From Hemileia vastatrix (Eukaryota > Basidiomycota > Pucciniomycetes > Pucciniales > Zaghouaniaceae), in NCBI GenBank assembly GCA_030280995.1, contig JASXTE010000001.1:10387001-10451000 (forward strand): a stretch of 64,000 nt of DNA, in the 5' to 3' direction. The first letter of the stretch is position 1; the number at the start of each line of letters is the position of its first letter. Below, in pieces: positions 5,610 to 46,596 of the stretch. The position numbers and the translations under genes are program-made. The notes under the pieces are model-generated. The model was not told the origin of the DNA, did not search any database, and saw nothing but the letters and a program-made list of their open reading frames with translations.

Positions 5610-6411
5610 TGTCACCGGACAACCTACGCACAAGGTCGAGGGTGTTCCTGGAAGTGAGATGAGAAGTTTAGAGACTTCTTCAAAGCACAGAGGAATTGTT
5701 CGAGGAAGTGTTTCAAAGATGACTTGAAGGAAGAGATACTGCTTCAAGTTATATTTGAGAAGAATCTTAATATATCTTATGGTAATACTAATATTCTTAA
5801 AATCTCATAAAGGGTTGTAACACTCAACAATAAAGGATTTAAATTTAGAGATGATTATTGAGGTAAAAAGGAAATGTACAATAACAATGATTTAACTTGC
5901 AGTTTTACCACTATTTACTATAAATATGTTTTATAATTTAATTCTAAAGAAACATTGAACCAAAATCCAACCCCTTTTATATCTATTACTCCTCCTCGCA
6001 TTGACCTCATACCCATCCATCATTCCGCACACCACAGACTACCAAAATTACACCTGTTACACCTGGACCCTCCTCACTAACATCCGTTAACCCCTTAATC
6101 CTCCACTAATAATTCCGCCCATACTCACTACCCCTTTTTAATAACCCACATATATTTAATAAAACCTTTAGCTGAATATTTCATTGACTATTGCGCTGTG
6201 CGTCGCTTATCGAAGAAACGTCTAAGAACACTTTTGAGAATTGACTAATTTAGATTTAAAGTTTAGATCAGCCCAGTTGAATAGTGAGTACACAAAGGGA
6301 AGTCGCCGTGGCAAGGTAGAATCGCTTTCTGTGCTTCGAGTATGGATTTAGACCTCTATTTTATTGATTTAATGAGCTGCTTTTGCCTCAAGTGTCACGT
6401 GGCGCGTGAAA
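5610..6411 (-). repeat. 3' LTR of retrotransposon A
   Basis: Direct copy of the LTR at 13232-14033, same length (802 bp). Its inner end reads GTGAAA where the partner has GTGACA. No polypurine tract abuts it on the element side. Confidence 0.92.
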
Positions 6412-6507: not shown

Positions 6508-7522
6508 ATGTCAGCTTTCCCCACTCCAACTCCCACGCCTCCTCACCCCAAAGCGGATGGTGGGATCATTACCTGACAGTACTCCCAAGCATGCACGGCT
6601 TGTGAGTCGATGGAATACTTCTGTGTTGAAAGCACGGCTACTCGAGGTCCTTGCCAGAAATGCAAGTTTTTCTGATGGAGACGGGTGACGTGCAATGCTT
6701 TATCTAAAAACTCGGAAATCGAACGAAGGTTTACCAAGACCAAATATTGGGTAATACCAAAGAACAAAGAGGTGGTCAAAGATATATGGGACGTGTCAAT
6801 TGGGGATGATCAATCAGAAGCAGTTGAGGAGGAAGTTGAGGGTACGGTGGCAACCTGGGTAACTCAAGCCACGGGTAAAAAAAGAAGGGTAGAAGAGGAG
6901 GTGGAGGAATTGGTGGAGGAAGATGAGGAGGAAGTCCCCATCTCAAGGCAGATGGTCATCAAAGATGATGAAGAAGAAAAAGAAGTGACAGTAGAAGTCA
7001 CATCGAAGTTATTTCTAGAGGCTGATCCGGTGTTCGAAGTAAGTTTGCTTTTTATTTTATTTTTATTTTTTTTTCCAAAGAAAAAATTTTACTGATGACC
7101 GTATGTTTTAGAATTCAGATGTCATTGCGGAAGCCCCTATGGTGGAAGCCTCAAGTGTGGAAGCTCCTATTGTGGAAACCACTTCTGTGGAAGTGGCCGT
7201 TGTGGAAGTGGCGCCATCGATCCCTACTGAAGAACATTTACCAGTGATTGCCTCGACGGAGGATAATGAAGAAACTCTTGACCAGGTATGGTCAAAAAAA
7301 CCTCTCCAGGGTCGACAAACTAGGTTCATTGAAGAGTTAAGTGGCGATGTCGACAAGATTATCAATGCTGCCTCCTTCGACGTGGCTGAAAAATTGCAGG
7401 AGATTGGGGAAGTGGTACTGGTAGGAGAGGGGGAGGTTTTTGAGAAATGTAGGAAGGAAATAAGGGTGATTTTGGAGAAGATGAAGAAATTGGTTTGAGA
7501 GAAAATACAGGAAAAAATTTAA
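6508..7522 (+). pseudogene. Antisense two-exon accessory gene of retrotransposon A, disabled copy
   Basis: Runs opposite to gag-pol, between pol and the 3' LTR. Exon 1 is 6508-7038, the intron 7039-7111 (GTAAGT, branch-like CTGAT, TTTTAG) and exon 2 7112-7522; both exons join in phase 0. The predicted protein aligns along its length with the intact copy in B (35474-36442). It keeps the cysteine array apart from one position, where the fifth Cys is Phe. It then has the conserved stretch FTKTKYWVIP, an acidic Glu/Val-rich middle and VEAS-type repeats at the start of exon 2. Three TGA codons disable it: 6574-6576, 6673-6675 and 7496-7498, the last replacing a Trp codon of copy B. Function unknown. 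Confidence 0.75.
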
Positions 7523-8337: not shown

Positions 8338-11300
8338 TTAAGGTTTTGGTTTTATAGGATATTTAAGATGAAAAGATTTTAGAAGTTCAGGGGCGTTAGA
8401 AACATTGATGGCTGGTTCCCAGGATGTTTTGTCTGAATCATCGAGGAAGCCTTCCCATTCCACAAGGTATTGAAGTTTCCCCTTGCGCATTCTTGAATCA
8501 AGGATCCAAATTACTTCCCACTCTAGATGGTCTTCTACTTCGACCGGTTCCGGAGGAGGTTGGTTCTTGCCCGGGTATGTTTCTTGAGCTAGTTCCAAGA
8601 GAGATACGTCGAAAACAGGGTGAATAGCTTTCCATTTAGGAGGTAGCTTGAGTCGAAATGCAGTTTTAGAGACTTCAGAGTCAATTTCAAATGGTCCCAA
8701 GCGCCTTTTGGCTAGTTTCTTTGATGGTCGAGTTGTTCAAATGTTTCGTGCGTCGAGCCATACTTTGTCGCCTGGTTTAAAGAGAGGAGCAGATTGTCAA
8801 TGTTTATTGGCCTGTTCCTTGTACCTTCAAGTGGCTAATTCCAAATTTGATTTAAGTTCTTCTTGGAGTTGTGATATGGTTTGAAGATAATGTTCCACAG
8901 GATGATTAGTTCCTACATGGATTGAGTTGAATCAAGGATGCCTTCCATAAACAGTTTTGAAAGGAGATTGTCGTGTCAAAGAATGAGTCGAGTTATTATA
9001 AGCAAATTCGGCCAATGGTAACCTTGTGGTCCAATTGTCTTGTTGGTAACTGACATACATTCAAAGGTATTGTTCGAGGATTTGGTTGACCCTTTCTGTT
9101 TTCCCAACTGTTTCAGGATGATAGGCCCTGGAGAGATTCCTTGTGATATTGAGTTGTCAACACAGTTGAGTCCAGAATGTGGATACAAACAACGAGCTCT
9201 ATCTGAAATAATATCATTAGGTTAGCCATGTTTGGAAAATACATATTCTAGAAACAATTTTGACAAATCTTCTGCTGTAGCAGTAGTAGTGGTTTTAATG
9301 AAAATAGACATTTTTGAAAATCTATCTACTATTACTAATATAGCATCAAAATTATTAGAAAGGGGAAGTTGAGAAATGAAATCCATCAATAAAGATTCCC
9401 AAGGTTTAGAGGGAATAGGAAGTGGTTGAAGCAACCCTTGCTTCTGGTGACAGGGAGCCTTATTCCTATTACATTCGTAAAAAGCTCTTATGTAGGCTTT
9501 GATTTCTCTGGTCATTCCTGGCCAGAAGAAATCCCTTGCTATTAACTGGTAGGTTTTATCAACCCCAAAATGACCAGCTAATGGAGAATCATGTCGACTA
9601 TTGAAAATCCATAATTTTATTTCATTGTTGTTGGGTATGACTACTCTACCTTTGAAGACTAATAGGCCTGATTCAATACTAAATCTTTTGGCCCCTTGCT
9701 TTGAGAGTATTTTGTCTTTTAACCCTAAACAATAATTGTCCTTCAACTGAGCTTCGAGGATGTTGGATAGTGTATTTTGAAAAGATTGAATTGTCATCAA
9801 ATTAAGTTGATGCATCATTAACATTGATTTGTTGAAAATTGATTTCACATTTGCTGGGTTCTTGTCAGCAAATGTGTCCCCCCGCTGTGGGTAAACGTTG
9901 ACCCGACGTGACAAGATATCTGGGACAATGCAGTTCTTACCTGGGCAATAGTAAATAGAAAAAGGAAATTCAGACAGAAATTCAGCCCACCTGGCTTGAA
10001 GCCTGGTTAACACTTTGGAAGACATAAAGTATTTCAAAGCATTATGGTCTGTTAGAATTTTAAAAGGACTATCTAAGCTGAGAAGAAAAGAGCGCCATTT
10101 TTTAAGACAATGAATAATTGCTAAAATCTCTTTGTCATGAATTTCATTATTTAATTCTGCTGCAATGAGTTTGCATGACTCAAAAGCAACAGGATGAAAC
10201 AATTTTGTTTCAGGATTTAATTGAGAAATGACCCCTGCGATAGCATAATTGCTTGCATCTGTCTCAACTATTGTAGAAGCAGAAGGATCAAAGTGTCAAA
10301 GAATTGGAGCTGTGGTGAACGCAGTCTTCAACGCTTTGAATTCCTTTTGTGCTGTAGAAGTAAAAACAAAAGGAATATCTTTTCTAAGAAGAGAAGTAAG
10401 ATTGGAAATAGTTTTAGAGTAATCTTTAAAAAATCTTCTATAGAAATTTGAAAAACCCAAAAATCCTTGTAGGTATTTAATGGTTTTGGACTCAGGCCAT
10501 TCTAGGACTTTTTGGACCTTTTTGTTGTCCATGACTAAACCATCAGTGGATAATGTAAACCCCAAAAAATCAATTGATTTAAGATGGAATTTGCATTTAT
10601 TGTGCTTGGTGTAGAGACCGTGATCTCAAAGTCAATTTAGAACCTGTCGAACATGATGAATATGTTCATCTAGTGTCTTCGAGAAAATTAAAATATTATC
10701 TAAATAGATGACAACAAATTTTTTGACAACATCTTGAAAGATGACATTGAAAAAAGTTTGAAAAGTCAATGGTGCATTACACAATCCAAAAGGCATAACT
10801 AAATATTCAAAACTACCAAATCTAGTGCGCATTGCAGTCAGTGGTTCATGACCTTCTGCAATGCGAATAAGATTGTAAGCGCCTCTTAGATCAATTTTAG
10901 AAAAGAAATTAGCACCATTGAAAAGGGTAAGAAGCAATGACATAGGAGGAACAGGATATGCATTTTTCTTAGTGACTGTGTTGAGCTTTCTATAGTCAAC
11001 ACACAACCTAAGGCTACCATCCTTTTTCTTTACAAAAAGAACAGGGGAGCCGGTTGGAGATTTACTGGCTCTGATAAAATCTTTGGCTACATTCTCTGCA
11101 ATGTAGTCTTGAAGAAATTGAGATTTGTCCTTTGACAAAGAATAGACAGGACCTGCCGGAGGTACTGGACCTATTAACTCTATTTGATGGTTGTAGGGTT
11201 GATGAGATGGTAACTTATCGGCCTTGCGGATTGAGAAAACATCGAGGAAATCATGATAGATTTCTGGTAGAGTTGACTTAATGGCTTCAACGTTGATTTT

Positions 11301-13231: not shown

Positions 13232-14033
13232 TGTCACCAGACAGCCTACGCACAAGGTTGAGGGTGCTCCTGGAAGTGAGATGAGAAGTTTAGAGACTTC
13301 TTCAAAGCACAGAGGAATTGTTTGAGGAAGTGTTTCAAAGATGACTTGAAGGAAGAGATACTGCTTCAAGTTATATTCGAGAAGAATCTTAATATATCTT
13401 ATGGTAATACTAATATTCTTAAAATCTCACAAAGGGCTGTAACACTCAAAAATCAAGGATTTAAATTTAGAGATGATTATTGAGGGAAAAAGGAAATGTA
13501 CAATAACAATGATTTAACTTGCAGTTTTACCACTATTTACTATAAATATGTTTTATAATTTAATTCTAAAGAAACATTGAACCAAAATCCAACCCCTTTT
13601 ATATCTATTACTCCTCCTCGCATTGACCTCATACCCATCCATCATTCCGCACACCACAGACTACCAAAATTACACCCGTTACACCTGGACCCTCCTCACT
13701 AACATCTGTCAACCCCTTAATCCTCCACTAATCATTCTGTCCATACTCACTACCCCTTTTTAATAACCCACATATATTTAATAAAACCTTTAGCGGAATA
13801 TTGCATTGACTATTGTGCTGTGCGTCGCTTATCGAAGGAAAGTCTAAGAACACTTTTGAGAATTGACTAATTTAGATTTAAAGTTTAGATCAGCACAGTT
13901 GAATAGTGAGTACACAAAGGGAAGTCACCGTGGCGAGGTAGAATCGCTTTCTGCGCTTCAAGTATGGATTTAGACCTCTATTATATTGATTTAATGAGCT
14001 GCTTTTGCCTCGAGTGTCACGTGGCGCGTGACA
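13232..14033 (-). repeat. 5' LTR of retrotransposon A
   Basis: 802 bp, starting TGTCAC and ending GTGACA on the plus strand, followed by the target duplication GAATC. A minus-strand TATAAAA at 13597-13603 is the likely promoter. Confidence 0.93.
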
Positions 14034-14440: not shown

Positions 14441-14443
14441 AAA

Positions 14444-17279: not shown

Positions 17280-17280
17280 A

Positions 17281-25500: not shown

Positions 25501-25505
25501 CATCA

Positions 25506-25600
25506 GGTCATGTGTTGTATGAGGGACATCATGGGGACATTTGTTTTCCTCATGAGGTTCATGTATACACTTAAGTTTGATTTGATTAACTTTGGTCATA
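25506..25600 (+). pseudogene. C-terminal fragment of the TET/JBP-like gene, resumed after retrotransposon C
   Basis: Directly after the target duplication one frame reads HVLYEGHHGDICFPHEVHVYT, placing a His-rich segment where this family has its second iron ligand. A similar stretch (LFHGVHLTYT) occurs in H2 near 40450. The fragment is short and assigned mainly by position. Confidence 0.3.
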
Positions 25601-26064
25601 GATAATTTCCACTCCCATTTTCACTTATATTTTCATTAATTTAGCTTTTTTCAGTTATCTTATATACCTTGTTTACATTTTAATTTATGCAATGAACTTA
25701 AAATTTGGCAATCTATTTCACTACTTACAATAAAACACAGGGGAAGGTATTGCCTTTTTTTTTTTTGCCAAAATAATTTTTTTGACTTAGAAAAAAAAAA
25801 TGGTGATCCCCAAGCCATGCTATGGTAAAAAGCAGGGCAGAGTATTTCCAAAAAAAAAAAAAAAAAAAAAAAAAATTCATAAATTTTTTTTGACTTAGAA
25901 AAAATATGGTGATCTTTACCCCATTATATAATAAAGTGAAAATTAAGCTATTGCCAAAATAAACTTGCATACTTTGTTTCCATAAATACTCTTATTCTAC
26001 CTAGATCCATTCTCTCTAACAACCAAGTAATAATTCAAGTTTTGTTTTCTCAAGAATATTTTAA

Positions 26065-26330
26065 ATGAGTACCTCATCTTGTATTGAAAAGTATTCTAAC
26101 AAGGGTTATCAGCTCACATATCAATACTTTAGAAATTTCACACAATGAAAAAAATCTAATCACTATTGTGTTTAAAATTCAGTACCTCAAGCAAGATTTG
26201 AAACATGTCAAAGCTGCCATTGGTTTCATCTAAAATGTGATGCTCTTGAACTTAATCCTGAAATGAAATCTCAATTCACAAACTTAAGCTTTTGGTCTCA
26301 CCAGGATAAAAGAGAGATTTTGTAAGAGTA
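26065..26330 (+). pseudogene. Cys/His-finger gene fragment in H1
   Basis: From ATG 26065 (MSTSSCIEKYSNKGYQLTYQ) one frame, interrupted by TGA and TAA, reaches RFETCQSCHWFHLKCD, a CX2C-HX2C pattern like half of a PHD-type finger. It may be an additional H1 gene or another exon of a neighbouring one. The family could not be identified. Confidence 0.3.
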
Positions 26331-26604
26331 ATTGATTATATTTCATTATTAAAATAGATAAGCAAGACAAAGATTTTTTTAAATAAAATATAGTAGGGAA
26401 CAGAAGATAATTGAAAAAAAAAATCTCAAACTAGAAAAGAAATTGTTTCTGATGAAGAGAAAGAATCATATAAAACTTATTCCTCAGGTGGAAAATCCAG
26501 TGAGTCTGGAGAAATACTTTACAAATATAAATTTGAGACTCAATAAAACACCAAAAATTTTAGTTAGAAAGCAATAATGGGAAATTCATGCTTCATGTAG
26601 TAGA

Positions 26605-26865
26605 TTGAATAAAAATAGCAAAAGAAAGGAATCTTTGTATGATGATAGTATGTGGGAACAGATAAAAGAAAGTGATAATTCAAAGACAAAAGAAAAATTC
26701 ATAAACATAATTGATAGAAAGATAGAAAGTATGATTGAGGGAGTAGGATATAGATTATTAGATATCAGTTTTTTTGTTAGACAAAAAAATGTTGAAGAGC
26801 TTAAAAATCTAAGCAAGAAGATACAAGAATTGTTGGAGGAATTTCATGTTGATATTAAAGAATAA
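26605..26865 (+). CDS. Small charged hypothetical ORF in H1
   Basis: 86 residues, no recognised domain, rich in Lys and Glu with a predicted helical C-terminal half (NVEELKNLSKKIQELLEEF). It follows the Cys/His fragment on the same strand and may be a later exon of it. It could also be chance, since the region is A-rich. Confidence 0.25.
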   Translation: MNKNSKRKESLYDDSMWEQIKESDNSKTKEKFINIIDRKIESMIEGVGYRLLDISFFVRQKNVEELKNLSKKIQELLEEFHVDIKE

Positions 26866-26889
26866 ATTCAGAAAGAAATGTATAAATAT

Positions 26890-28169
26890 TTTCTTTTATT
26901 TAGCCAAGTAAAGAAAGCAACTCTTTAATATCAGCATTTGACATATTTGCTTTAACACAGGCAAGTAAAAGAGCTTGATTTCTTTTTTTTCAGCATTAAG
27001 GTGCTTCATTTTTAATTTAGAAACTTGTAATTGAATTTTGGAATTTTCCAATTGAAATCAGTTATTTTTTAATTATTTTCAATGTCCTCTCTTTAAGTCA
27101 TAAATTTCTCCCTTTCCAAATCTAAACAATCTTTCTCAATTTCTAAATAGACTTTCTTCCTTTGATTTCAAATGAATCTACTCTTTTTCCTTAAAAAAAG
27201 TAGTTGATGATCTGCAGTTTTTTCATAAGACTCTAACTTCATGATTTCAATGTGTGCTTGTTCTTTTTCTAAAAAAGTTTAAATTTTAAAAATAAGAGAA
27301 ATAAATCAAGAAAAATTCTTTATTAAAATACAAAATGAAAAATATAACCTAGTTCATGCTCATTAACAATCTCTCCATAAGCAGAAAAAATAGCCATTGC
27401 TGTAGATTGAGTTGTCTCAAAACTAGCAGAAGTTCTCCACTTGAATCTGTTGCCAACAGGGGTTGATTCTTTATCTTCTAATCTTTCATCTTCAATTACT
27501 TCCTTACAAATTTCTAGATTTTATGAACCATGGTTCTGGTTGATACATGGGGACTTAATTAGAAAAACAAAAGTAAAAAAATAGCAAAAGTAGATTAGGC
27601 TTACTACCATGGGCTCATCAAGCTCAATTTCATAATACATAGGTGATTCTCTTAGTTCAGGAGAGTCAATTAAAGCATCTAAAGGAAAATCTTGACTATT
27701 TGTAAGAGAGTCAGAAATTCTTGGACCTTGATTCAAGTGCAAGGTGTTGACATTGGATCTTTTTCCAAAGAGTTCATCCATTTGATCATAAAGAGCACAT
27801 ATAGAGTTCAGTTTTTCAGAAAAAGATGTGATTCCATGTTTCTCATCATCTTTGGTAACTCCAAACCCAGTTGAAGTAGATGCCAAACTTTGCCTTTTTG
27901 TATTTTTTATTTTTAATTTTTCTTGAATCTTTCTCTCCTTTGCTTTATTTTCAAATCCATCTTACCTCTAGTTTTTGATTTCAGCCCCACTTCTATTTTA
28001 TGAAAGCCGCTCAATTTTAAGGCAGGAAAACAATCAACTTGAGTGGACTTTGCACAGCCAAAAAAAAGGCATCAAAATTAGAATTAATTTTCATCCAGTT
28101 TACTACAATCTGAAGGTCAGATGTTTTCCATTGAGTAAATTGTTGAGAAGTAGATTTTGGGTGAGGCAT
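26890..28169 (-). pseudogene. PIF/Harbinger-associated DNA-binding-type accessory gene, decayed
   Basis: Minus strand near the right end of H1, the usual place for the second gene of PIF/Harbinger elements, which supplies a Myb/SANT-like DNA-binding partner of the transposase. From ATG 28169 (MPHPKSTSQQ) it reads WKTSDLQIVVNWM, a SANT-like helix start. After frame changes come ASTSTGFGVTKDDEKHG and LNSICALYDQMDELFG, then an acidic region to about 27600 with a GTAAGC donor. Toward 26890 there is a charged coiled-coil C-terminus (HIEIMKLESYEKTADHQ). The GFG...LN.....Y..MD.L pattern recurs in H2 (40892-41212). Frameshifts and stops disable it. The family call is by overall pattern. Confidence 0.5.
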
Positions 28170-28593
28170 GATAAATGAACACTAAACAAAGAAATTAGTG
28201 AAAAAAGAAAATTTGGTTGAAGAAAAGGAAAAACTAATAAATATTTTAGATATTTATGATGCCCTAGGTAAAAATAAGAAGCTGTGAGGATAGAAATTCG
28301 AGCAGGAAAATTTGATAAAGAAAGGAATAAAAAATTAATAGACTTACTATGGTGTGAAGGGGAAAAATCTGATTTGGAAAAGAAATGGTAGAGAGGAGAT
28401 GTGATGTTGAGTATATGGGTTATGATGGAAGGATGGATATTTGCAGCTTATTGGAAGGAGGAGGATATTGGTAGGCTGAATTGTGTTTGAGAAAATTGTA
28501 CAAAAGTAGGATGTATTTGACCCCATGTTGGAGACCCCAAGTACCAAATCAGCCATGTTTCATGGTTTGTTTGGTAAGGTTTGAGATCCCTTA

Positions 28594-28984
28594 TTAATTT
28601 ATATAGGTGATCATCATAAATTTATTTTAAATTAAATTAATAATTATTTATCTATTTATGTAAAGAAAATGAAGATGGTGTAAAAATGATGAAGATATTT
28701 GAAAACATAAAAGAGATAATGTGAAATGATGAAAAAGAGGAAGAAGAAGAAGAGGAGAAGGAAAGACATACCTTTCAAGGGTTTCAAAAAACATTTTAAT
28801 AAGGTAGGCAAGAGGAAGTCATAGTGGGAGGAGGCGAGAATAAGGTATGAAAGTGGGAGAGGGGGTAGAATCTGAGTCAGAGAGGGGGAGGTGGAAGTGA
28901 GAAAGTGGAAGAGGAAGAGGGAGAGGTATGCAAGTGGCAGTGGAAGTGGGAAGTAAGTGAGGGGGTGTTGTCAAAATAGGAGAG
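28594..28984. other. Purine-rich low-complexity DNA between H1 and retrotransposon B
   Basis: From about 28660 to 28984 the plus strand is nearly all A and G (GGAAGTGG, GAGGAAGAGG runs). The same character continues after retrotransposon B at 37352, showing the element landed inside this tract. No gene. Confidence 0.6.
28980..28984. repeat. Target duplication GAGAG of retrotransposon B, left copy
   Basis: GAGAG precedes the LTR at 28985 and recurs at 37352-37356. The flanks are purine-rich, so a chance match is more likely than for A or C, but the position is exact. Confidence 0.75.
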
Positions 28985-29787
28985 TGTCACACGCCACGTG
29001 ACACTCGAGGCAAAAGTAGCTCATTAAATCAATACTAAAGGGTTCAAATCCATACTTGAAGCGCAGAAAGCAACTCTCCATAGCAACTGCGACTTTCCTT
29101 TGTGTACTTGCTATTCAATCGCGCTAGCCTAAAACTCTAAATCTAAATTAGTCAATCTCTCAATAGTGTGTCTTAGTCTTTTTCCCAATAAGCAACGCGC
29201 AGCGCAATAGTTAATATAATAGTACATTAAAAGGTTTATGAAATGTCTGTGGGTTATTAAGGGGTAGTGAGCATGGACGGAATGGTTAGTGAAGGATTAA
29301 GGGGTTAACGGATGTTAGTGAGGAGGGTCCAGGTGTAACGGATATATTTTAAATGGTTTGTGGTGTGCAGAATAGTGGATGAGTATGAGGTCAATGCAAG
29401 GAGGAGTAAATGATATAAAAGGGGCTGGGTTTTTGGTTCAACATTCCTTAGAATTAAATTATAAAACAAATTTATAGTTAATAGTGATACAACTCTAAGT
29501 GAAAATTATTATTATTGTATCTTTCTTTATTTTCTCAATAATCATATCTAAATCCTAAATCTTTTATTGTTGAGTTTCCAACCCTTCGTGAGATCTTAAG
29601 AATTTTAATATTACCATTCAATTATATTAGAATCCTTCTCGAACATAACTCGAAGCAGTAGTTCTTCCTTTGAGTCATCTTCCAATCACTTCCTCGAACT
29701 ATCCCTCTGTGCTTTGAAGAAGTATCTGAACCTTTTATCTCACTTGCAGGAATATCCTCAACCTTGTGCATAGGTCATCCGGTGACA
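28985..29787 (+). repeat. 5' LTR of retrotransposon B
   Basis: 803 bp. The first 19 bases contain TGTCAC and GTGACA as an inverted pair (stem with a 7-nt loop), repeating at one end of the LTR the inverted pair that also closes it. TATAAAA lies at 29414-29420. Confidence 0.93.
29414..29420 (+). promoter_or_regulatory. TATA box of the 5' LTR, retrotransposon B
   Basis: TATAAAA in the context GATATAAAAGGGGC. Transcription would start about 25-35 bases downstream, at or just before 29450, where the segment complementary to the primer site begins. Confidence 0.6.
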
Positions 29788-29788: not shown

Positions 29789-29802
29789 TATAATTTAATT
29801 CT
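29789..29802 (+). promoter_or_regulatory. Self-complementary primer binding site, retrotransposon B
   Basis: TATAATTTAATTCT, one base after the LTR, is the exact reverse complement of AGAATTAAATTATA at 29450-29463. The latter lies 30 bases after the TATA box, near the expected 5' end of the RNA. Copy A has the same pair. This fits a Tf1/sushi-type self-primed mechanism rather than tRNA priming. Confidence 0.78.
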
Positions 29803-29864: not shown

Positions 29865-31052
29865 ATGGCACCTGTTCAGAGCACTCCTCCTACAGGCGCT
29901 ACTACTAGAGCTCGCGCCAGAGGCAGGCCAACAGCCACTAGGCCTGTTTCCGGCACTCACTCCTTGGAGCCACTCAACCTTAGGGAACAGCAACATTTAG
30001 TCCAATTGGTAGAAGACATCCCACAAGATTTTGATGATTCTAGTGATGATGAAGAAGGAGAGGATACAATGCACGAGGCACAATCCGCCCCTGCTAACCA
30101 CCCTTCTGGTCAACCTTCAGAACCTGGACCATCCAATTCTCTGGAAGATTTCATGAGACTTTTCATGAAGACCCTTTCAAATTCAACGTCTTCAGAGGGA
30201 TCTAAATTCAAAACTCCTTCTATGAAATCTCCTGATAAATTCGATGGAGAACATCCAGACAGATTGCGACCCTTCTTGCAAACCTGCAAGCTCCTGTTCC
30301 ATAATGACCCTCGAACCTTCAATAACGACCAATCGAAAGTTGTTTATGCTTCTTCATTCCTGGCCGGAAAAGCAGCAAGATGGTTCAAACCTTATCTTCT
30401 CATGCTCTCTTCAACCGAAACCCACTTACTTATTAATAACTGGGAAAATTTCAAAGACCAACTCTTCACGTTGTTTGGTGACCCTAATGAAACTGACAAC
30501 GCAGAAATTGAACTTGATTTACTTTGCATGAGTGATAATGGGAAAGCCTCTGAATATATCTCGAACTTCAGAGCGCTTCAAACTCGAGTAGGTTGGAATG
30601 ATGCTGCCCTTAAGTATCATTTCAAAAAAGGACTTCCTTCGAGGATTCTGGATCAATTAAATCTTCATGGTCAGAAGATGACTACTTTAACAGATTTAAT
30701 GGATCGAACCCTCGAACTTGACGGCGTTTACCAAGGACAACTTCAACATCGTCGATACACCAACAAATTTCAAGGCTTAAATTTCAAATCGGGACCTTCT
30801 TCACACCCACGAACAACTCACTCCTCCTTGACTCAATCCAAACCTATTAAGGGAAAGGACAAACCTCGACTGAAAAGCTCGACCCCAGGCAATATCAGTA
30901 AAGTACTGGATCCTAAAGGGGAACTTAAAGAAGCTGAGAGGAAGAGGCAAGCAGATAATGGGTTATGTATGTATTGTGGGGGTAAGCACAAGCTGGAAGA
31001 TTGTGTAAAATTGAAGGAAAGAGAAGGTACTAGTTTGAAGCCAAAAAACTAG
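29865..31052 (+). CDS. gag polyprotein of retrotransposon B
   Basis: 395 residues, open throughout, starting MAPVQSTPPTGATTRARARG. After a basic, Pro/Thr-rich N-terminus comes an acidic patch DDSSDDEEGED (about 58-68), then a capsid domain (about 125-290, with KFDGEHPDRLRPFLQ, FLAGKAARWFKPYL, NWENFKDQLFTLFGDP). Near the end is a zinc knuckle GLCMYCGGKHKLEDC (CX2CX3HX4C, one residue shorter than the usual retroviral spacing). The protein packages the RNA into virus-like particles. It ends at TAG 31050-31052 directly after the heptamer A AAA AAC. The start is the first ATG of the frame, 77 bases after the LTR. Confidence 0.92.
   Translation: MAPVQSTPPTGATTRARARGRPTATRPVSGTHSLEPLNLREQQHLVQLVEDIPQDFDDSSDDEEGEDTMHEAQSAPANHPSGQPSEPGPSNSLEDFMRLFMKTLSNSTSSEGSKFKTPSMKSPDKFDGEHPDRLRPFLQTCKLLFHNDPRTFNNDQSKVVYASSFLAGKAARWFKPYLLMLSSTETHLLINNWENFKDQLFTLFGDPNETDNAEIELDLLCMSDNGKASEYISNFRALQTRVGWNDAALKYHFKKGLPSRILDQLNLHGQKMTTLTDLMDRTLELDGVYQGQLQHRRYTNKFQGLNFKSGPSSHPRTTHSSLTQSKPIKGKDKPRLKSSTPGNISKVLDPKGELKEAERKRQADNGLCMYCGGKHKLEDCVKLKEREGTSLKPKN
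31043..31049 (+). promoter_or_regulatory. Candidate -1 frameshift heptamer A AAA AAC, copy B
   Basis: Codons in gag frame are CCA AAA AAC TAG. The pol frame is open from 31034 to beyond the gag stop in the -1 frame and contains no ATG before the protease, so a -1 slip here would fuse gag to pol. Conserved in copy A at 11987-11993. Confidence 0.72.
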
Positions 31053-34000
31053 TAGATAGTTTACTTGTGTGCAAAGCAAACTATCTTATCTCTCCCAGTG
31101 CACAGAACCTTCATGTCTTAAGGACTGGAGTTGCCTTAAACCGCTTGAGATTCATTCTTTTCAAGGAGGATATCCCCTTCAGTTGTCTTATAGACTCTGG
31201 AGCTTCAATTTCTTTTGTCAGTTTATCTTTTGCCAAGAAGTTACAGCTGACATTTACAGATATTGATCAAACTCCAATTTACTTGGTCGAATCAGAGGAA
31301 CCCAAATATTGGGTCAGTAAGAAAGTTTTATGGGTTTTCAACTTTCCGAATTTTCCCCCCTTCAAGTGGGAACTAACAGTCTTGGACGCCCCAAGGATGG
31401 ACGATACCATTCTTGGCCATGACTTTTTAACGCATTGGAATCCTGAAATTGATTGAACACGGGGATTGATCACCCCATGGACTGAGTATATTTCTGATTC
31501 TTCAATGCATGTCAATAGGGAATTAAACAACCCGCCTGACAATGTCCTGCTAGAGGACAAATCTCTGCCAGATGACTTGCAAGCATCTGATCTTTCTTTA
31601 AATGAGAAATTGGCTAACCCTTCTAGCTCGATGACTTCACTTGAAGAGGATTTAAATTGCCTCGAAGTAATCGAATTATGCTCTCTCAATTCTGGTCTTC
31701 CCTCAACAGATTTTCTCGAAGATGATGAGGATGACCAAATTGACGTTGAAGCCATTAAATCGACTCTACCAGAAATCTATCATGATTTCCCTGATGTTTT
31801 TTCAATCCGCAAGGCCGATAAGTTACCACCTCATTGACCCTACGACCATCAGATAGAGTTAATAGGTCCAGTACCCCCGGCAGGTCCTGTCTATTCTTTG
31901 TCAAAGGACGAATCTCAAGTTCTTTGAGACTACATTGCAGAGAATGTAGCCAAAGGTTTCATCAAAGCCAGTAAATCTCCAACCGGCTCCCCTTTCCTCT
32001 TTGTAAAAAAGAAGGATGGTAGACTTAGGTTGTGTGTTGACTATAGAAAGCTCAACACAGTCACTAAGAAGAATGCATATCCTGTTCCTCCTATGTCATT
32101 GCTTCTTACCCTTTTTAATGGTGCTAATTTCTTTTCTAAAATTGATCTTAGAGGAGCTTACAATCTTATTCGCATTGCGGAAGGTCATGAACCACTGACT
32201 GCAATGCGCACTAGATTTGGTAGTTTTGAATATTTAGTTATGCCTTTTGGATTGTGTAACGCACCATCTACTTTTCAAACTTTTGTCAATGACATCTTTC
32301 AAGATGTTGTCGAACAATTTTTTGTCGTCTATTTAGATGATATTTTAATATTCTCGAAGACACTGGATGAACATATTCATCATGTTCGACAGGTTTTAAA
32401 TCGACTTCAAGGTCATGGACTCTACTCCAAGCATAATAAATGTGAATTCCATCTTAAATCTATTGATTTTCTGGGTTTTAAATTATCCACTGATAGTTTA
32501 GTCATGGACGACAAAAAGGTTCAAAAGGTCCTGGAATGGCCTGAGCCCAAATCTGTTAAATCCCTCCAAGGATTTTTGGGTTTTGCAAATTTCTATAGAA
32601 GATTTATTAAAGATTACTCTAAAACTATTTCCAATCTTACTTCTCTTCTTAGAAAAGATATTCCTTTTGTTTTTACTTCTACAGCACAAAAGGAATTTGA
32701 AGCATTGAAGACGGCGTTCACCACAGCTCCAATTCTTCGACACTTTGATCCTACTGCTTCAACAATAGTCAAGACAGATGCGAGCGATTATGCTATCGCA
32801 GGGGTCATTTCTCAATTGAATCCGGAAACAAAACTGTTTCATCCTGTTGCTTTTGAGTCACTCAAACTCATTGCAGCAGAATTAAATTATGAAATTCATG
32901 ACAAAGAGCTTTTAGCTATTATTCATTGTCTTAAAAAATGGCACTCTTTTCTTCTCAGCCTAGATAGTCCTTTTCAAATTTTAACAGACCATAATGCTTT
33001 GAAATACTTTATGTCTTCCAAAGTATTAACCAGGCGTCAAGCCAGGTGGGCTGAATTTCTGTCTGAATTTCCCTTTTCTATTTCCTATTGCCCAGGTAAG
33101 AACTGCATTGTCCCAGATATCTTGTCACGTCGGGACGACGCTTACCCACAACGGGGGGACGCATTTGCTGACAAAAATCCAGCAAATGTGAAATCAATCT
33201 TCAACGAATCAATGTTAATGACTCATCAACTTAATTCGATGACAATTCAATCATTTAAAAATCCACTATCCAACATCCTCGAAGCTCAGTCAAAGGACAA
33301 TTATTGTTTAGGGTTAAAAGACAAAATACTCTCGAAGCAAGGGGCCAAAAGATTTAGTATTAAATCAGGTCTATTAGTCTTTGAAGTTAGAGTAGTCATA
33401 CCCAACAACAATGAGATAAAATTATGTATTTTCAACAGTCGACATGATTCTCCATTAGCTGGTCATTTTGGGGTTGATAAAACCTACCAGTTAATAGCGA
33501 GGGATTTTTTCTGGCCAGGTATGACCAGGGAAATCAAGGCCTATATAAAATCTTGTTACAAATGTAATAGGAATAAGGCTCCCCGTCACTGGAAGTATGG
33601 GTTGCTTCAACCACTTCCTATTCCCTCTAAACCTTGGGAATCTTTATCGATGGATTTTATTTCTCAACTTCCTCTTTCTAATAATTTTGATGCTATATTA
33701 GTAATAGTAGATAGATTCTCAAAAATGTCTATTTTCATTAAAACCACTACTACTGCTACTGCAGAAGATCTGTCAAAATTGTTTCTAGAATATGTATTTT
33801 CCAAACACGGCTTACCTAATGATATTACTTCAGATAGAGGCTCATTGTTTGTATCCACATTCTGGACTCAACTGTGTCGACAACTCAATATCACAAGGAA
33901 CCTCTCCACAGCCTATCATCCCAAAACCGATGGGCAAACAGAAAGGGTCAACCAAATCCTCGAACAATACCTTCAAATGTATGTCAGTTACCAACAAGAC

Positions 34001-34699
34001 GATTGGACCACATGGCTACCATTGGCCGAATTTGCTTATAATAACTCGACTCATTCTTCGACACAACAATCTCCTTTTGGAACTGTTTATGGAAGACATC
34101 CTCGATTCAATTCAATCCATGTAGGAACTAATCATCCTGCGGAACATTATCTTTGAACCATATCACGACTCCAAGAGGAACTTAAATCAAATCTGGAATT
34201 AGCGGTTCGAAGGTACAAGGAACAGGCTGACAAACATTGACAAACTGCTCCTCCTTTTAAACCAGGCGACAAAGTATGGCTCGACACACGGAACATTTGA
34301 ATGACTCGACCATAAAAGAAACTGGCTGAAAAACGCTTGGGGCCATTCGAAATTGACTCTGAAGTCTCTAAAACTGCATTTCGACTCAAGCTACCTCCTA
34401 AATGGCAGGCTATTAACCCTGTTTTTCACGTATCTCTCCTGGAACTGGCTTGAGAAACATACCCGGGCAAGAACCAACCTCCTCTGGAACCGGTCAAAGT
34501 AGAAGACCATCTAGAGTGGGAAGTAAGCCGTATCCTTGATTCAAGAATGCGCAAGGGGAAACTTCAATACCTCGTGGAATGGGAAGGCTTCCTCGATGAC
34601 TCAGACAAAATATCCTGGGAACCAGCCATCAATGTTTCTAACGCCCCTGAACTCCTAAAATCTTTTCATCTTAAATACCCTTTAAAACCAAAACCTTAA
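31043..34699 (+). pseudogene. pol of retrotransposon B, eight in-frame stops
   Basis: About 1210 codons in one frame. Protease LIDSGAS, reverse transcriptase with MPFGLCNAPSTFQ and YLDD (about 420), RNase H KTDASDYA (about 570), integrase HHCC finger (near 800-845), core with MDFISQLP, TSDRGSLF and HPKTDGQTERVN, GPF-type module, and C-terminal chromodomain (KLQYLVEWEGFLDDSDKISWEP). Stops: TGA 31454-31456, 31835-31837, 31925-31927, 34154-34156, 34238-34240, 34298-34300, TAA 34313-34315, TGA 34451-34453. Unlike copy A it has no net frameshift, and YLDD is kept. Several stops stand where the ancestral codon was probably CGA. The central RT to integrase block (32030-34156) is open. The protein cannot be made whole. 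Confidence 0.93.
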
Positions 34700-35473
34700 A
34701 ACTCTTTTTTTCTTTTCTCTGTTTTTTTTTCTTTCTTTTAAAATCTAAAACATTTTTATTTCTAAAAATTTCTTTTGTTTTCTTCTTTATTCTTTTTCTT
34801 TTCAAAATGTTTCAACCTTCTTTAAAAAAAAAAAAAATTAAATTAAAATAAAATAAAATAAAAGTAAAATAAAATAAAAATAAAATAAAAAAAAAAAAAA
34901 CAAATAAAAAAAAAAATTTCTTCTCAATTTTCTATATACATTTTTTAAAAAAAATTTACTTTCCTCGAACTATCAAAAATTCTTCACAAACATTACACAA
35001 CCATCTTTCTTGAACTTCATTTTAACTTCTAAATCACTTTTTTTTTAATTTTTTGAAACAAATTACTTCTTCAAAATCCTCTTAAAATTTTTATTTCATC
35101 TCTTCTTTTCTTTCTTTTCTTTTTTCAAATAACTAAAATCCCTCAAATCTTCAATTAACAAACTTAAATAACAATTTTTTTTTCTCTTTTCATTAAATTT
35201 TTCATTACAACAAATTTTTTTCAATCAACTATATATTTTTTTTATATTTTCATCGTCTTTCTTCTCTCATTCAGATATCTTCTTTCAAAATTTAAAAAAA
35301 AAAAAAAAATCTGTTTAAATCTTTTGTTTCTTCTCTGTCTTTTCTTAGTTCTTATTTCTCTCAAAATCTTATAAAAAAAATATATATTAAAATTCTAAAT
35401 AAAATAACAAAATAAAATAATGAAATACAAATTGTTTCTACATTTTTTTTTCTTTCTTTTTTCTCTTTTTATT
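34700..35473. other. Pyrimidine-rich spacer between converging pol and antisense gene
   Basis: T/C-rich on the plus strand with A-runs at 34830-34920 and 35290-35310. It separates the end of pol from the end of the antisense gene, which point toward each other. No reading frame. Confidence 0.6.
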
Positions 35474-36442
35474 TTAAATTTTCTCTTTTATCTTCTCCCA
35501 AACCAATCCCTTCATCTTCTCCAAAATTTCCCTTATCTCCTTTCTACATTTTTCAAAGTTCTCCCCCTCTCCTACCGGAATCAATTCCCCAAGTTCAAGT
35601 AACTCCTCGGCTATGTCAAAGGAAGCGGCATTGACAATTTTATCAATCTCACTGCTCAAGTCTTCAATATATTTTGCTTTTCGAACCTGACAAGGTTTCT
35701 TCGACCATACTTGATCGAGGGTTTCTTCGTTTTCCTCCCTCGAGGTAACAGTTGGTAATCTATCCTCCACCGACACTGCCACTTCCACAGCAGTGGGTCC
35801 CACAAGGATCGCTTCCACATTTGAAGCTTCCGTTGTAGGGACCTCGATGATGACATCTGAATTCTAAAACAGAATCATCAGTAATTAAATTTATAAATTA
35901 TAAAAAGGTGAACTTACTTCGAAGATTGGGTCAGGCTCCAAAAATAATCTAGGAGTGAACTTCTCTGCCACCTCCCTTTCCTCTTCGTCATCTTTGATGA
36001 TCACCCGTCGTTTTTTCAGGGTTTTCCTCGAGATGGGAATTTCTTCTTCCTCCTCTATGACCCCCCTCTTGTTCGCAGCCGTAGTCACCCAGATGTTCAC
36101 ATCATCCTCAACTTCTTCCTCATTTCCCCCCACCGATTGATTGTCTCCAATGGACACATCCCAGATGTCCTCAACTACTTCCTTCCTTTTAGGGATCACC
36201 CAATACTTCGTCTTAGTAAACCAACTCTCAATGTCGGCATTCTTTGCTAAGGCGTCACATGCCACTCTTCTCCATCGGCAAAACTCGCACTTCTGGCGAG
36301 GCCCTCGTGTCGCCGTGCTCTCCACGCAAAAATACTCCATCAACTCGCAAGCCGTGCAAGTCTTCGAAAATTGCCGTGTGACAACACCCCCATCCGCTTT
36401 AGGGTGTGGAGGCATGGGAGTCGGTGTAGGGAAATCCGTCAT
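35474..36442 (-). CDS. Antisense spliced accessory gene of retrotransposon B; Zn2Cys6-like cysteine array
   Basis: Exon 1 36442-35918, intron 35917-35864 (54 bp, GTAAGT, CTGAT, TTTTAG), exon 2 35863-35474; phase-0 join, 304 residues, no stop. It begins MTDFPTPTPMPPHPKADGG. Six cysteines (about residues 31-63) are spaced CX2CX6CX12CX2CX6C, the spacing of fungal Zn(II)2Cys6 clusters, although the first half lacks the usual basic residues (ELMEYF between Cys 2 and 3) while the second half has RWRRVA. Then follow WFTKTKYWVIPKRKEVV, an acidic middle with IPISRK and KKRRVIIKDDEEE, and in exon 2 a helical C-terminus (about 230-300) rich in Glu and Lys. A DNA-binding or regulatory role is inference. 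It lies opposite to pol, starts 106 bp inside the 3' LTR, and has its own TATA box. Confidence 0.75.
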
Positions 36443-36532
36443 AGTGATTTAAAGTAATAAAAATAATAATTAAGTAAAGAGGAAGGAAAATTAGTGTGGG
36501 AAATATGTTTTACGCTCAACGGAGCTTGCGTT

Positions 36533-36538
36533 CTTATA
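36533..36538 (-). promoter_or_regulatory. TATA box of the antisense gene, copy B
   Basis: TATAAG on the minus strand in GGGTATAAGAACGC, 91 bases before the ATG at 36442 and 11 bases from the 3' LTR. Copy A has TATAAAT at the same distance. Confidence 0.5.
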
Positions 36539-36548
36539 CCCGGGCATC

Positions 36549-37351
36549 TGTCACGCGCCACATGACACTCGAGGCAAAAGTAGCTCATTAAATCAATACT
36601 AAAGGGTTCAAATCCATACTTGAAGCGCAGAAAGCAACTCTCCATAGCAACTGCGACTTTCCTTTGTGTACATTCTATTCAATTGCGCTAGCCTAAAACT
36701 CTAAATCTAAATTTGTCAATCTCTCAATAGTGTGTCTTAGTCTTTTTCCCAATAAGCGACGCACAGTGCAATAGTTAATATAATAGTACATTAAAAGTTT
36801 TATGAAATGTCTGTGGGTTATTAAGGGGTAGTGAGCATGGACGGAATGGTTAGTGAAGGATTAAGGGGTTAACGGATGTTAGTGAGGAGGGTCCAGGTGT
36901 AACGGATATATTTTAAATGGTTTGTGATGTGCGGAATAGTGGATGAGTATGAGGTCAATGCAAGGAGGAGTAAAGGATATAAAAGGGGCTGGGTTTTTGG
37001 TTTGACATTCCTTAGAATTAAATTATAAAACGTATTTATAGTTAATAGTGATACAACTCTAAGTGAAAATCATTATTATTGTATCTTTCTTTATTTTCTC
37101 AATAATCATATCTAAATCCTAAATCTTTAATTGTTGAGTTTCCAACCCTTTGTGAGATCTTAAGAATTTAAATATTACCGTTCAATTATATTAGAATCCT
37201 TCTCAAACATAACTCGAAGCAGAAGTTCTTCCTTTGAGTCATCTTCGAATCACTTCCTCGAACTATCCCTCTGTGCTTCGAAGAAGTATCTGAACCTTTT
37301 ATCTCACTTGCAGGAACATCCTCGACCTTGTGCATAGGTTGTCTGGTGACA
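36549..37351 (+). repeat. 3' LTR of retrotransposon B
   Basis: 803 bp, differing from the 5' LTR at scattered bases (for example TGTCACGC against TGTCACAC at the start), so older than retrotransposon C. No purine tract abuts it: the preceding bases read ATACCCGGGCATC. Confidence 0.92.
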
Positions 37352-40891: not shown

Positions 40892-41212
40892 TCAAGAACC
40901 AGAAAGAATATCCATTCCCTCATAGAGAAGATACATGACATTGAGCTTTTTGGAAACAGTAGTAATTCCATTCTCCAAATCATAATCATCAATACCAAAG
41001 CCAGTGGAAGTGGAAGTGGAAGTGGAAGTGGAAGTGAAATGAGCCTTTTTATATTTTGATTGATAGCTTTTGAACCTCTCCTTCATTTTCTTAGATTTGA
41101 TGTTGATTCTCCCCCTTTTTTTTTTTTTTTTTACTTCATTTGCTATCAACAAAAAGCAATTTACCTTTGATGAAGGTGAACATCTGATTTGGGGAGGTTG
41201 AAAACATAACAA
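40892..41212 (-). pseudogene. Accessory-gene fragment of H2
   Basis: Minus-strand frame with KKMKERFKSYQSKYKKAHF, a Ser/Thr repeat from a GGAAGT microsatellite (41000-41038), then STGFGIDDYDLENG and KLNVMYLLYEGMDIL. This matches the central part of the H1 accessory gene. Only the central third remains. Confidence 0.5.
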
Positions 41213-41648
41213 AAGAAGGAAAAAAACATGCCTGGTTAGAATTTCACAATAAAATGTTTCAAATCTCAGTGAGGGGTGTGTGCCAATGATTGATGGGTAG
41301 GGAGGGAGGTCAGTGTGTCACATGTGGTTGTGAAAAAAAAAAATGGGAAAAAAGTGCTGATTTGAGGTCATAACTGACACCCATTTTTGAAATAAGTGAC
41401 TTTTTTTGCAAAATTTAAGTGCTGATTTGGTTAAGTTAAGTGCGGAATTGCCAGAACTGACACCCCCTAATATGACTAAAAAAACTATAAGTAAATGTCA
41501 TACATACAAAGCAAGACAAAGAAAAAAAAAAAGAATCTGCTTTATCTTGATGATTGGAACTAGATTCTTCTTGCCCTGAAGCGGCTGAGTCACGTGTGCT
41601 GCATGGCATTTTTGGCCGCTGCTTGCGTGTGTTTTTTGGGCGCTCCTC

Positions 41649-44752: not shown

Positions 44753-46346
44753 CAAGCCTAAGAATATCAAAGGAACCGTTGATGAGCGTAGATTGGAATC
44801 ACAACAACTAACTAAAACTATCAATCTAACTATCTATCTATATGGAGAGAGTGTCTGGTGATCTTTGATTCATTTATCTTGAGACATCTGGAAAAATCGC
44901 AGAGTTCTCTAGTAGTTGCTTATAATGTCATGACAAGCTTTTAAAGATTCATAATGAAATAACGCAGGTAAGGATAGCAACTGCGTGATTAAATAACTCA
45001 ATATGATATGCACTTACATTAATTTTTATATTTTAAATGAAAAATCACCCCCTTTGACAATTCATAATACTCACGCAAAATATCATCAACTTTTTTGCTT
45101 ACCACAAAAGTATAAAATAATAATCATTAAGAAAATCAAAAACCACAAAAATACAACTAGTGCAAAAATGGTAAAAAAGTCGTTTGTGTAACATGAAAGA
45201 TGAACGAAAAAATTGACGACATTGGATTTGGGATTTGGTATTTCAAGCCACCAAAAAAGAAAAGAAATATATATATATATATATGTGTAATATAATATTA
45301 AAAAAACCTGGCACCTGCTAGCAGGTGCCAACCTTTTTTTTTTTCATGGTTAGTTTTATTTTTTATTTTTTACAATCTTATTCAAAGAGGAACAAGAAGA
45401 AGGCAAAGTATTATATGTGTGTACTAGGTTGAAGACAAAGAGGGGAGGATGAATATGGTTATCTAAAAGAAGTGACAAGAGTGTAGTAGCTAAAAGGAGA
45501 GGGGGAGATTGTTAAAGAATCTCATGGTTTTAACAAAGTATAAGCGGCGACTAAAGAAAAAACAGGGGAGAGAAGACCTGGAAAACGGGTTTTTATGTTT
45601 ATGGACCGATTTTTTGAGAGCCGCTCGTTTAGATGAATACGTAAAACAGACAAGTAGGACATATTTAGGGGTGTCTATTAAAGTAAGAGTTTTATACATG
45701 ATGCAGGTTATAGATTTTATATCAAAATAATTAATTTCTTCAGGGGGAGATGAGTTGCCTGAATGACATTAGAATAAAGCTATTGCACTTTTTCCGCCTA
45801 ATAGTAGCCCCATCATGTATGTAGTCCTTGCATGTTTCTCCTTCACTTCATGCTCCTTGTCGGGCGAGATTGAAAGAAATAAAAAAAAATAAAAAAAAAG
45901 TAAAGATAAAGCTATGATGGTATGCGCTCAAGGGTGAAGAGAGAGAAGGGATATGAGGTATATTATATTAGCCCTTGAAGCAGACTGTCAACCAATTCAT
46001 TTTCTGAGATGCAAGAAAATAGCCTGTGCACCAACAGACTCTTGAGCTGAAGGGAAGGGTTTGCAAGATGGGAGTGGGTGAAAAGTGAGAATAATGAACA
46101 AAATTAAAGAAACATTAGTGTTAGTGTTTTAGAGATGGAGTAGGTAGAAGGGAAGTGTAGTAGCGCGTCAGTGACAGAACTCCGAGAAGAATCAGAGTTA
46201 GTTAGACACACTCACTGCAGTCTATATACAACATATCACGTGATAGCTAAGTACATACATCTGTGTCTAAGTACATAACAGCCCCCCACTTCGCTATCAC
46301 TGTAAGAGCATCCACACTCGCAGGTCAAATCAGCTTTGGTATGCAT
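44264..46346. other. Microsatellite-rich intergenic DNA
   Basis: Contains (TA)n at 44384-44402, (AAAGT)n at 44584-44611, a long A-rich run (44670-44750) and (TA)n at 45268-45284. The frame at 45509-45730 (RREDLENGF-like, 73 residues) has no recognised domain. The last 170 bp (from about 46170) have higher complexity, with a C-run in AACAGCCCCCCACTTCGC, and may be an LTR or host promoter fragment. Confidence 0.4.
45309..45330. repeat. Perfect 22-bp palindrome flanked by A- and T-runs
   Basis: TGGCACCTGCT followed directly by its exact reverse complement, between an A-run and a T-run. Its centre TGCTAGCA is the same as that of the hairpin in the inverted-repeat element ends. Confidence 0.9.
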
Positions 46347-46596
46347 CACTACGCAATATAAGGGGTGGGCTTGCTAGCAAGTCCCCAACCTGAACTCAGA
46401 TGGAACTCAGACTGAACTCATATTAAACCCATACTGAACTCTACTTGAACACCCACCCAAAACTGTTCTGCTGAGTGGTGTTCATCCCTGATGGTATGGT
46501 TCCTTTATCAATAGCTCAGTGTGTGTTCAATCTGTCTTGAGTTTGGGTCCAAGGTTGTGGACTCGCTAGCAAGTCTGCCGCCCATATTGTGTGGTG
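46347..46596. mobile_element. 250-bp inverted-repeat element (MITE), second copy
   Basis: Almost identical to 772-1021, with ends CACTACGCAATAT and ATATTGTGTGGTG. Flanking triplets CAT and ATT do not match, so the duplication has changed or the insertion was followed by rearrangement. Confidence 0.85.

What the first reader, a model, noticed from the sequence alone, without database searches (positions are those of the whole stretch)
35474..36548. Spliced gene on the opposite strand of a chromovirus, with Zn2Cys6 cysteine spacing
Seen: in copy B two exons (36442-35918, 35863-35474) join in phase across a 54-bp GTAAGT...CTGAT...TTTTAG intron to give an uninterrupted 304-residue frame opposite to pol. 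Copy A has the same exons and intron (6508-7522). The cysteines are spaced CX2CX6CX12CX2CX6C. Known: that spacing defines fungal Zn(II)2Cys6 DNA-binding clusters; most Ty3/gypsy elements have no antisense gene, though some carry extra ORFs. Inference: a retrotransposon-encoded regulator, perhaps of its own LTR or of host silencing.
Basis: partly seen in the sequence, partly recalled or inferred. Interest (0 to 1): 0.88.

Follow-up and report, generated by a model that had tools for sequence, protein, structure and literature searches.

The report
Spliced antisense gene in fungal retrotransposon
A fungal jumping gene carries, on its opposite strand, a small intron-containing gene whose protein sequence has been kept by natural selection; it is a new fungal example of a rare layout known from a few plant and fungal elements, and what the protein does is still open.

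Summary
In copy B two exons (36442-35918, 35863-35474, minus strand) join across a 54-bp GT..AG intron into a 304-residue frame between pol and the 3' LTR. Copy A has the same layout, but a 73-bp intron, three in-frame stops and one Cys lost. The gene is real: A/B changes fall at codon positions 36/20/91 (exon 1) and 26/20/54 (exon 2), pN/pS 0.17 and 0.31, and no other frame open in B shows this. A decayed relative lies outside both elements at about 26066-26865. The six-Cys spacing is exact, but Pfam's zinc-cluster cut-off is not reached (8.6 and 13.4 bits, cut-off 21): 'Zn2Cys6 regulator' stays inference. New: the gene's silent sites are near saturation in exon 1 while gag and pol differ at 2-17% of fourfold sites, so the cassette has a separate history. 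Antisense genes in this place are known (Boty, Grande, Retand): a new variant of a known kind. The genome-wide search did not complete (21 tries), and there are no RNA data.

The parts
28985..29787 (+). 5' LTR of element B (TGTCAC...GTGACA), 5-bp target duplication GAGAG outside
   Evidence: self-alignment and flanks
36549..37351 (+). 3' LTR of element B, 96.1% identical to the 5' LTR
29789..29802 (+). primer-binding site: 14 bp complementary to the element's own 3' LTR (37014-37027), Tf1/sushi-type self-priming; the same in A (13217-13230 with 5932-5945)
   Evidence: (both pairs)
29865..31052 (+). gag (395 aa)
   Evidence: PF03732 E 2.2e-10
31928..34156 (+). pol, RT-RNaseH-integrase part, in pieces (other open pieces 31034-31456, 31457-31837)
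   Evidence: PF00078, PF17917, PF17921, PF00665 on 32030-34156; ORFs
36534..36538 (-). TATA box (GGGTATAAG) of the antisense gene, starting at the 11th internal base from the 3' LTR edge; conserved in A at 6422-6426
   Evidence: promoter function inferred
35918..36442 (-). antisense gene exon 1 (175 aa)
   Evidence: open frame; codon-position changes 36/20/91 against A
36257..36358 (-). six-cysteine module CX2CX6CX12CX2CX6C (residues 29-62)
35864..35917 (-). intron, 54 bp, GTAAGT..TTTTAG, branch-like CTGATGA also in A
35474..35863 (-). antisense gene exon 2 (129 aa and stop), C-terminal part predicted helical
   Evidence: codon-position changes 26/20/54 against A; model helices 58-93 and 100-127 of the exon-2 piece, mean pLDDT 57.7
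6508..7522 (+). same gene in element A (element on minus strand): exon 1 6508-7038, intron 7039-7111 (73 bp), exon 2 7112-7522; three in-frame stops, one Cys lost
5610..6411 (-). 3' LTR of element A
13232..14033 (-). 5' LTR of element A, target duplication GATTC
8338..8736 (-). element A: SH3_Tf2-1 and chromodomain end of pol
   Evidence: PF24626 E 1.2e-13, PF00385 E 1.3e-11
26066..26865 (+). copy C: decayed relative of the antisense gene outside A and B; keeps the second CX2CX6C (TCQSCHWFHLKC)
   Evidence: tblastn E 1.9e-7 over residues 18-90; the C-terminal part (26578-26865) is an alignment at 21% identity only

Best explanation
The element carries its own accessory gene on the strand opposite to gag-pol, next to the 3' LTR. 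Shown by sequence: intact spliced frame in B, the same exon/intron plan in A, strong selection on the protein in that frame, conserved TATA-like and splice signals. Inferred: a promoter at the 3' LTR/internal junction (TATA just inside the junction, upstream elements in the LTR edge) makes an antisense mRNA; its intron is removed there but stays in the sense genomic RNA, so the intron survives retrotransposition. The protein is most likely a small nuclear zinc-binding factor (six-Cys module, acidic middle, helical C-terminus) that acts on the element's own expression, probably damping or timing sense transcription from the 5' LTR, in the manner of the antisense HBZ protein of HTLV-1.
For: Codon-position changes 36/20/91 and 26/20/54 (chi-square p 5e-13 and 5e-5); pN/pS 0.17 and 0.31; the only comparable frame is the mirror frame sharing third positions (0.31 and 0.38), which has stops in both copies. 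Control: downstream non-coding 34750-35473 gives 61/61/70. Exon lengths differ by 6 and 21 bp and nucleotide-alignment gaps inside the exons are 9, 3 and 21 columns, while the intron differs by 19 bp. TATA and the neighbouring ~60 bp conserved, 0.86-0.90 identity against 0.41-0.75 in exon 1. Cys spacing beyond chance. A third relative keeps the second half of the module.
Against: No expression data. No family or structure match above threshold supports DNA binding. Only two element copies could be compared and A is dead. In decayed copy C the first Cys pair is absent, the basic residues of the second half are not kept, and its best sub-threshold Pfam line is not Zn_clus but a TOPLESS zinc finger (E 0.013, 15.5 bits, cut-off 27). 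The exon-1 model is uninformative (mean pLDDT 34.3).
Confidence: 0.5

Rival explanations
1. Captured host gene carried as a passenger: A and B obtained the cassette from a host gene family or from another element; the protein constraint reflects selection on the host paralogues, not a role in the element. Copy C would be a relic of that host family.
For: Fourfold sites differ at 27/42 in exon 1 against 30/262 in the main pol piece and 25/145 in gag, so the cassette looks much older than the A/B pol split; copy C lies outside any element seen here (no gag, pol or LTR match beside it).
Against: Same insertion point, same promoter edge and same intron position in A and B; copy C is itself decayed like a transposon relic; no match in a protein database that holds rust proteins, though that search reaches close relatives only.
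Confidence: 0.2
2. Zinc-binding accessory protein with another task: anti-silencing, RNA chaperone or integration-complex factor, not a transcription factor.
For: Module does not meet Zn_clus; the core shared by B and C, CX2CxWX4CDALX2N with FT...W after it (A reads CNAL and has lost one Cys), differs from Gal4-type clusters as recalled; copy C's segment leans to other zinc-finger models.
Against: Exact Zn2Cys6 spacing; some plant counterparts are nuclear or predicted to bind DNA (PMC7264820, PMC11963269, passages read).
Confidence: 0.22
3. The product that matters is the antisense RNA: it pairs with genomic RNA and makes double-stranded RNA; the frame is incidental.
For: The antisense transcript would lie wholly inside the sense genomic RNA; PMC7264820 raises this possibility for plant elements (passage read).
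Against: Codon-level constraint with near-saturated silent sites is the opposite of RNA-level conservation.
Confidence: 0.06
4. Chance open frame without function.
For: Copy A is broken; no homologue outside the window found.
Against: Low pN/pS in this frame (0.17, 0.31), exon length differences in whole codons, splice and branch-like signals kept in otherwise poorly alignable introns.
Confidence: 0.02

Closest known systems
brtn, antisense gene of Boty-like Ty3/gypsy elements of Botrytis cinerea (Zhao et al. 2011; not read, seen only as cited in passages of PMC7264820, PMC4227169, PMC8365987, PMC5987419)
   Same: Fungal Ty3/gypsy element whose gag-pol has a chromodomain (PMC4227169 passage); additional gene antisense to gag-pol; PMC7264820 lists Boty among elements with antisense ORFs between pol and 3' LTR
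   Different: The BRTN sequence was not at hand, so homology was not tested directly; whether brtn is spliced or has cysteines I do not know
Plant antisense ORFs between pol and 3' LTR: maize Grande gene23, rice RIRE2, Silene Retand/TRP28 (PMC7264820, PMC11963269, passages read)
   Same: Position and strand, presence in most copies, own upstream promoter reported for Grande, proposed nuclear regulatory role
   Different: No TRP28 (PF04195) line here; the word 'intron' does not occur in either paper's main text; Retand elements are not chromoviruses
HTLV-1 HBZ (splicing and bZIP nature recalled; nuclear localisation in a PMC11963269 passage, antisense promoter in the 3' LTR of HTLV in a PMC7264820 passage)
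   Same: Antisense gene at the 3' LTR, spliced, nuclear regulator: a working analogy
   Different: HBZ is a bZIP protein whose promoter lies inside the 3' LTR; no homology claimed
Fungal Zn(II)2Cys6 cluster proteins (Pfam PF00172)
   Same: CX2CX6CX12CX2CX6C spacing
   Different: 8.6 bits for the exon-1 ORF and 13.4 for the 51-aa segment against a cut-off of 21; the part matched is the second half of the module aligned to profile positions 3-15 of 39

Membership tests
LTR retrotransposons with an antisense ORF between pol and 3' LTR (aORF-3R) | Gene antisense to gag-pol, between pol and 3' LTR | tested here: met
LTR retrotransposons with an antisense ORF between pol and 3' LTR (aORF-3R) | Present and constrained in more than one copy of the family | tested here: met
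   2 of 2 copies in the window carry it, one broken; pN/pS 0.17/0.31; other genomic copies not seen
LTR retrotransposons with an antisense ORF between pol and 3' LTR (aORF-3R) | Own promoter and antisense transcript | tested here: inconclusive
   conserved TATA-like box and neighbouring stretch; no RNA data
Retand TRP28 proteins | PF04195 domain | tested here: not met
   no such line for the joined protein or the exon-1 ORF with max E 10 (the filters drop most matches above about 0.1)
Boty brtn | Sequence homology to BRTN | not tested
   sequence not at hand; general protein searches found no relative
Zn(II)2Cys6 (PF00172) | CX2CX6CX5-12CX2CX6-8C spacing (recalled) | tested here: met
   residues 29-62 of B; 0 of 200,000 shuffles
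Zn(II)2Cys6 (PF00172) | Score above Pfam gathering cut-off | tested here: not met
   8.6 bits (exon-1 ORF) and 13.4 bits (51-aa segment), cut-off 21; the joined protein gave no Zn_clus line
Zn(II)2Cys6 (PF00172) | Basic residues in the first CX2CX6C half (recalled) | tested here: not met
   first half CTACELMEYFC; basic run RWRR is in the second half
Tf1/sushi-type chromovirus | Self-priming PBS | tested here: met
   14 bp next to the 5' LTR complementary to the LTR itself, in B and in A
Tf1/sushi-type chromovirus | Chromodomain after integrase | tested here: met
   A only: PF00385 E 1.3e-11; B's stretch not scanned
Tf1/sushi-type chromovirus | Purine-rich tract before the 3' LTR (general LTR-element feature) | tested here: not met
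   B TTATACCCGGGCATC, A TTTATACCCAGGCATC directly before the LTR

The most novel reading that the evidence does not exclude
A retrotransposon-encoded, spliced, antisense zinc-cluster factor that controls its own LTR, carried in an exchangeable cassette that changes its DNA while keeping its protein. The near-saturated silent sites, set between LTRs and gag-pol that differ by only 2-20% per 150-column window, could mean that subfamilies swap this module by template switching, or that the stretch covered by both sense and antisense RNA is driven to diverge at silent sites so that small RNAs made against one subfamily do not silence the next.
Probability: 0.2. Interest if true: 0.8.

Novelty: new variant of a known kind. 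Interest (0 to 1): 0.52.

Why it matters
Antisense genes beside the 3' LTR have been reported in some plant elements, in Boty and in HTLV, and the review whose passages were read here says that in the retrotransposons their function is unknown. A fungal example with a conserved intron, codon-level evidence of selection and a metal-binding-like module gives a compact system in which that question can be asked. The intron is informative in itself: it can persist through retrotransposition only because the gene is read from the strand opposite to the genomic RNA (inference). The uneven divergence makes it testable whether the accessory gene is exchanged between element lineages.

Tried and rejected
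Homologue searches that found nothing: joined protein in 5.8 billion proteins (2262 candidates, none E<=10); alignment A1 of exon-1 pieces (only the 7990 candidates sharing most words were scored, none E<=10); PDB by sequence (4 weak matches, E 0.36 or worse, none a zinc protein by name; none); viral contigs (42 pattern matches, no relative) and prokaryote genome contigs (103 pattern matches, no relative). Structure models: exon-1 part uninformative (mean pLDDT 34.3), exon-2 part a low-confidence helical pair (57.7), so no fold search was run. Whether copy C lies in another element: no LTR match better than blastn E 0.042 and no tblastx match to B's gag or 31928-34742 within 14037-15777 and 25501-28984, no long direct repeat there. 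Rfam: nothing in the window. Papers: ten searches; the Pucciniales transposon paper PMC12210899 has no 'antisense' in its main text. Host: not identified; among the 120 listed pol relatives (of 7876), 20 rows name an organism and 12 of those are Austropuccinia psidii (52-59% identity in the 11 rows of at least 87% coverage, one at 46% over 73%); the best hit is an unnamed contig at 65%. A rust fungus is likely but unproven.

Chance frame and RNA-only explanations were set aside on the codon evidence.

Full report
1. What is there. The window holds two related Ty3/gypsy elements. Element B (plus strand) has LTRs at 28985-29787 and 36549-37351 (96.1% identical) and a 5-bp duplication GAGAG; element A (minus strand) has LTRs at 13232-14033 and 5610-6411 (96.3%) and duplication GATTC. 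Next to the 5' LTR both have 14 bp complementary to their own LTR (B 29789-29802 with 37014-37027; A 13217-13230 with 5932-5945), the self-priming arrangement that PMC6317226 (passages read) reports for Tf1/sushi chromoviruses. Pfam finds gag, RT, RNase H and integrase in B and the SH3_Tf2-1 and chromodomain end in A. Both look like damaged copies: B's pol is open only in pieces, A's gag and pol as well.

2. The antisense gene. In B the minus strand of 36442-35474 encodes 175 codons, a 54-bp intron (GTAAGT..TTTTAG) and 130 codons including the stop, a 304-residue protein. A has the same plan at 6508-7522 with a 73-bp intron, but with two stops in exon 1, one internal stop in exon 2 and the fifth Cys position changed. 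The introns align poorly except for the GTAAGTT start and the TTTTAG end; both also hold a branch-like CTGATGA.

3. It is under selection. Codon alignment of A with B (166 and 128 codons compared; codons with a gap, and 2 with a stop per exon, left out) gives differences at positions 36/20/91 and 26/20/54; pS 0.85 and pN 0.147 for exon 1, pS 0.57 and pN 0.175 for exon 2. Of all six frames only this one is open in B throughout and has a low pN/pS (0.17, 0.31); the mirror frame that shares third positions has 0.31 and 0.38 but carries stops (3 in A and 1 in B for exon 1, 1 and 3 for exon 2), and the other four lie at 0.9 to 2.7. The non-coding stretch downstream shows little periodicity (61/61/70). 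Because that codon alignment was made through the protein, its gaps are whole codons by construction; independently, exon lengths differ by 6 and 21 bp, and gaps in the nucleotide alignment inside the exons are 9, 3 and 21 columns, whereas the intron differs by 19 bp.

4. Promoter. A TATA box (GGGTATAAG in B at 36538-36534, GGGTATAAA in A at 6422-6426) starts at the 11th internal base from the LTR edge, 96 and 86 nt before the ATG. Identity around it is 0.86-0.90, falls to 0.67 (11 gaps) around the ATG and stays at 0.41-0.75 through exon 1. The box is in the internal region at the 3' end only, so only that end can drive the gene. Promoter activity is inferred.

5. A separate history. Fourfold sites that encode the same residue differ at 27 of 42 in exon 1 and 10 of 30 in exon 2, against 25 of 145 in gag, 30 of 262 in the main pol piece and 1 of 46 in a smaller one (Fisher p 8e-13 for exon 1 against the main pol piece, 0.003 for exon 2, and 0.016 between the two exons). 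Twofold sites in exon 1 differ at 28 of 53, about what full randomisation would give. Per 150-column window the LTRs are 80-88% identical and pol 88-98%. Identity drops just past the end of pol and recovers near the TATA box. The simplest reading is that the cassette was exchanged between element lineages, or captured more than once; faster silent change in the stretch that can form double-stranded RNA is a bolder reading. With two copies these cannot be told apart, and the difference between the exons shows that the cassette is not uniform.

6. A third relative. tblastn of the protein against the window finds, besides A and B, a decayed copy C at 26104-26322 (26% over 73 residues, E 1.9e-7; stops in frame), followed downstream by a C-terminal-like open frame at 26578-26865 (21% identity in an alignment, significance not tested). 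It keeps CX2CX6C of the second half, and CDAL..N and FT...W after it; the first two Cys positions are lost. No gag or pol match and no convincing LTR match lies beside it.

7. Is it a zinc cluster? The spacing fits Zn(II)2Cys6 exactly, with 0 of 200,000 shuffles matching. Pfam's Zn_clus is the only line for the exon-1 ORF and for the 51-aa module, but at 8.6 and 13.4 bits against a cut-off of 21, and it aligns the second half of the module with the start of the profile. The joined protein as a whole gave no Zn_clus line, and copy C's segment gave other weak zinc-finger lines instead (TOPLESS E 0.013, PHD E 0.086, both below cut-off). Membership is therefore not claimed; zinc binding is likely, DNA binding open.

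8. How it may work. The layout allows antisense mRNA to be spliced and translated while the sense genomic RNA keeps the intron in reverse and passes it on. The protein is acidic (64 D/E, 44 K/R), with the Cys module near its N-terminus and a predicted helical C-terminus (low confidence). The proposal that it controls sense expression rests on analogy with HBZ and with the plant antisense ORF proteins described as nuclear or probably DNA-binding in PMC7264820 and PMC11963269 (passages read).

9. What is known. [quoted passage not shown] it states that their function is not known. No paper describing a zinc-cluster-like or spliced antisense gene in a basidiomycete retrotransposon stood out in the listings of ten searches (not all aimed at this, and long listings were capped at 20) of an open-access library that lacks most subscription journals. 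Hence: new variant of a known kind.

10. Limits.

Noticed in passing
36534-36548 and 6412-6426: Neither A nor B has a purine-rich tract directly before the 3' LTR; the antisense TATA box sits there instead. The other gypsy element in the window has GGGTGGGCGAG in that place.
   Followed up: partly
17997-18482 and 47887-48387 (+): Two related ORFs (28% over 93 aa, E 8e-8 in a two-sequence comparison, shared VSKWxWDW); the first overlaps the gag frame 17933-20968 of another gypsy element in a different frame: a possible overlapping accessory gene.
   Followed up: partly
15778-25500: A young gypsy element with 99.8% identical LTRs (15778-17279, 24000-25500), chromodomain and long open gag and pol frames.
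   Followed up: no
27521-27961 and 40892-41317 (-): Two related ORFs sharing STSTGFGxxxxDxExGITxxSxKLN (39% over 67 aa), the first next to copy C; no Pfam match above cut-off.
   Followed up: partly
57235-58759: Cluster of long inverted and direct repeats (arms 75-92% complementary).
   Followed up: no
62458-63345 (-): Piece of a tnp2-type transposase (PF02992, E 1.4e-8).
   Followed up: no
770-1021, 46345-46596, 55732-55983: Three copies of a 252-bp repeat (95% and 82% ungapped identity to the first copy).
   Followed up: no
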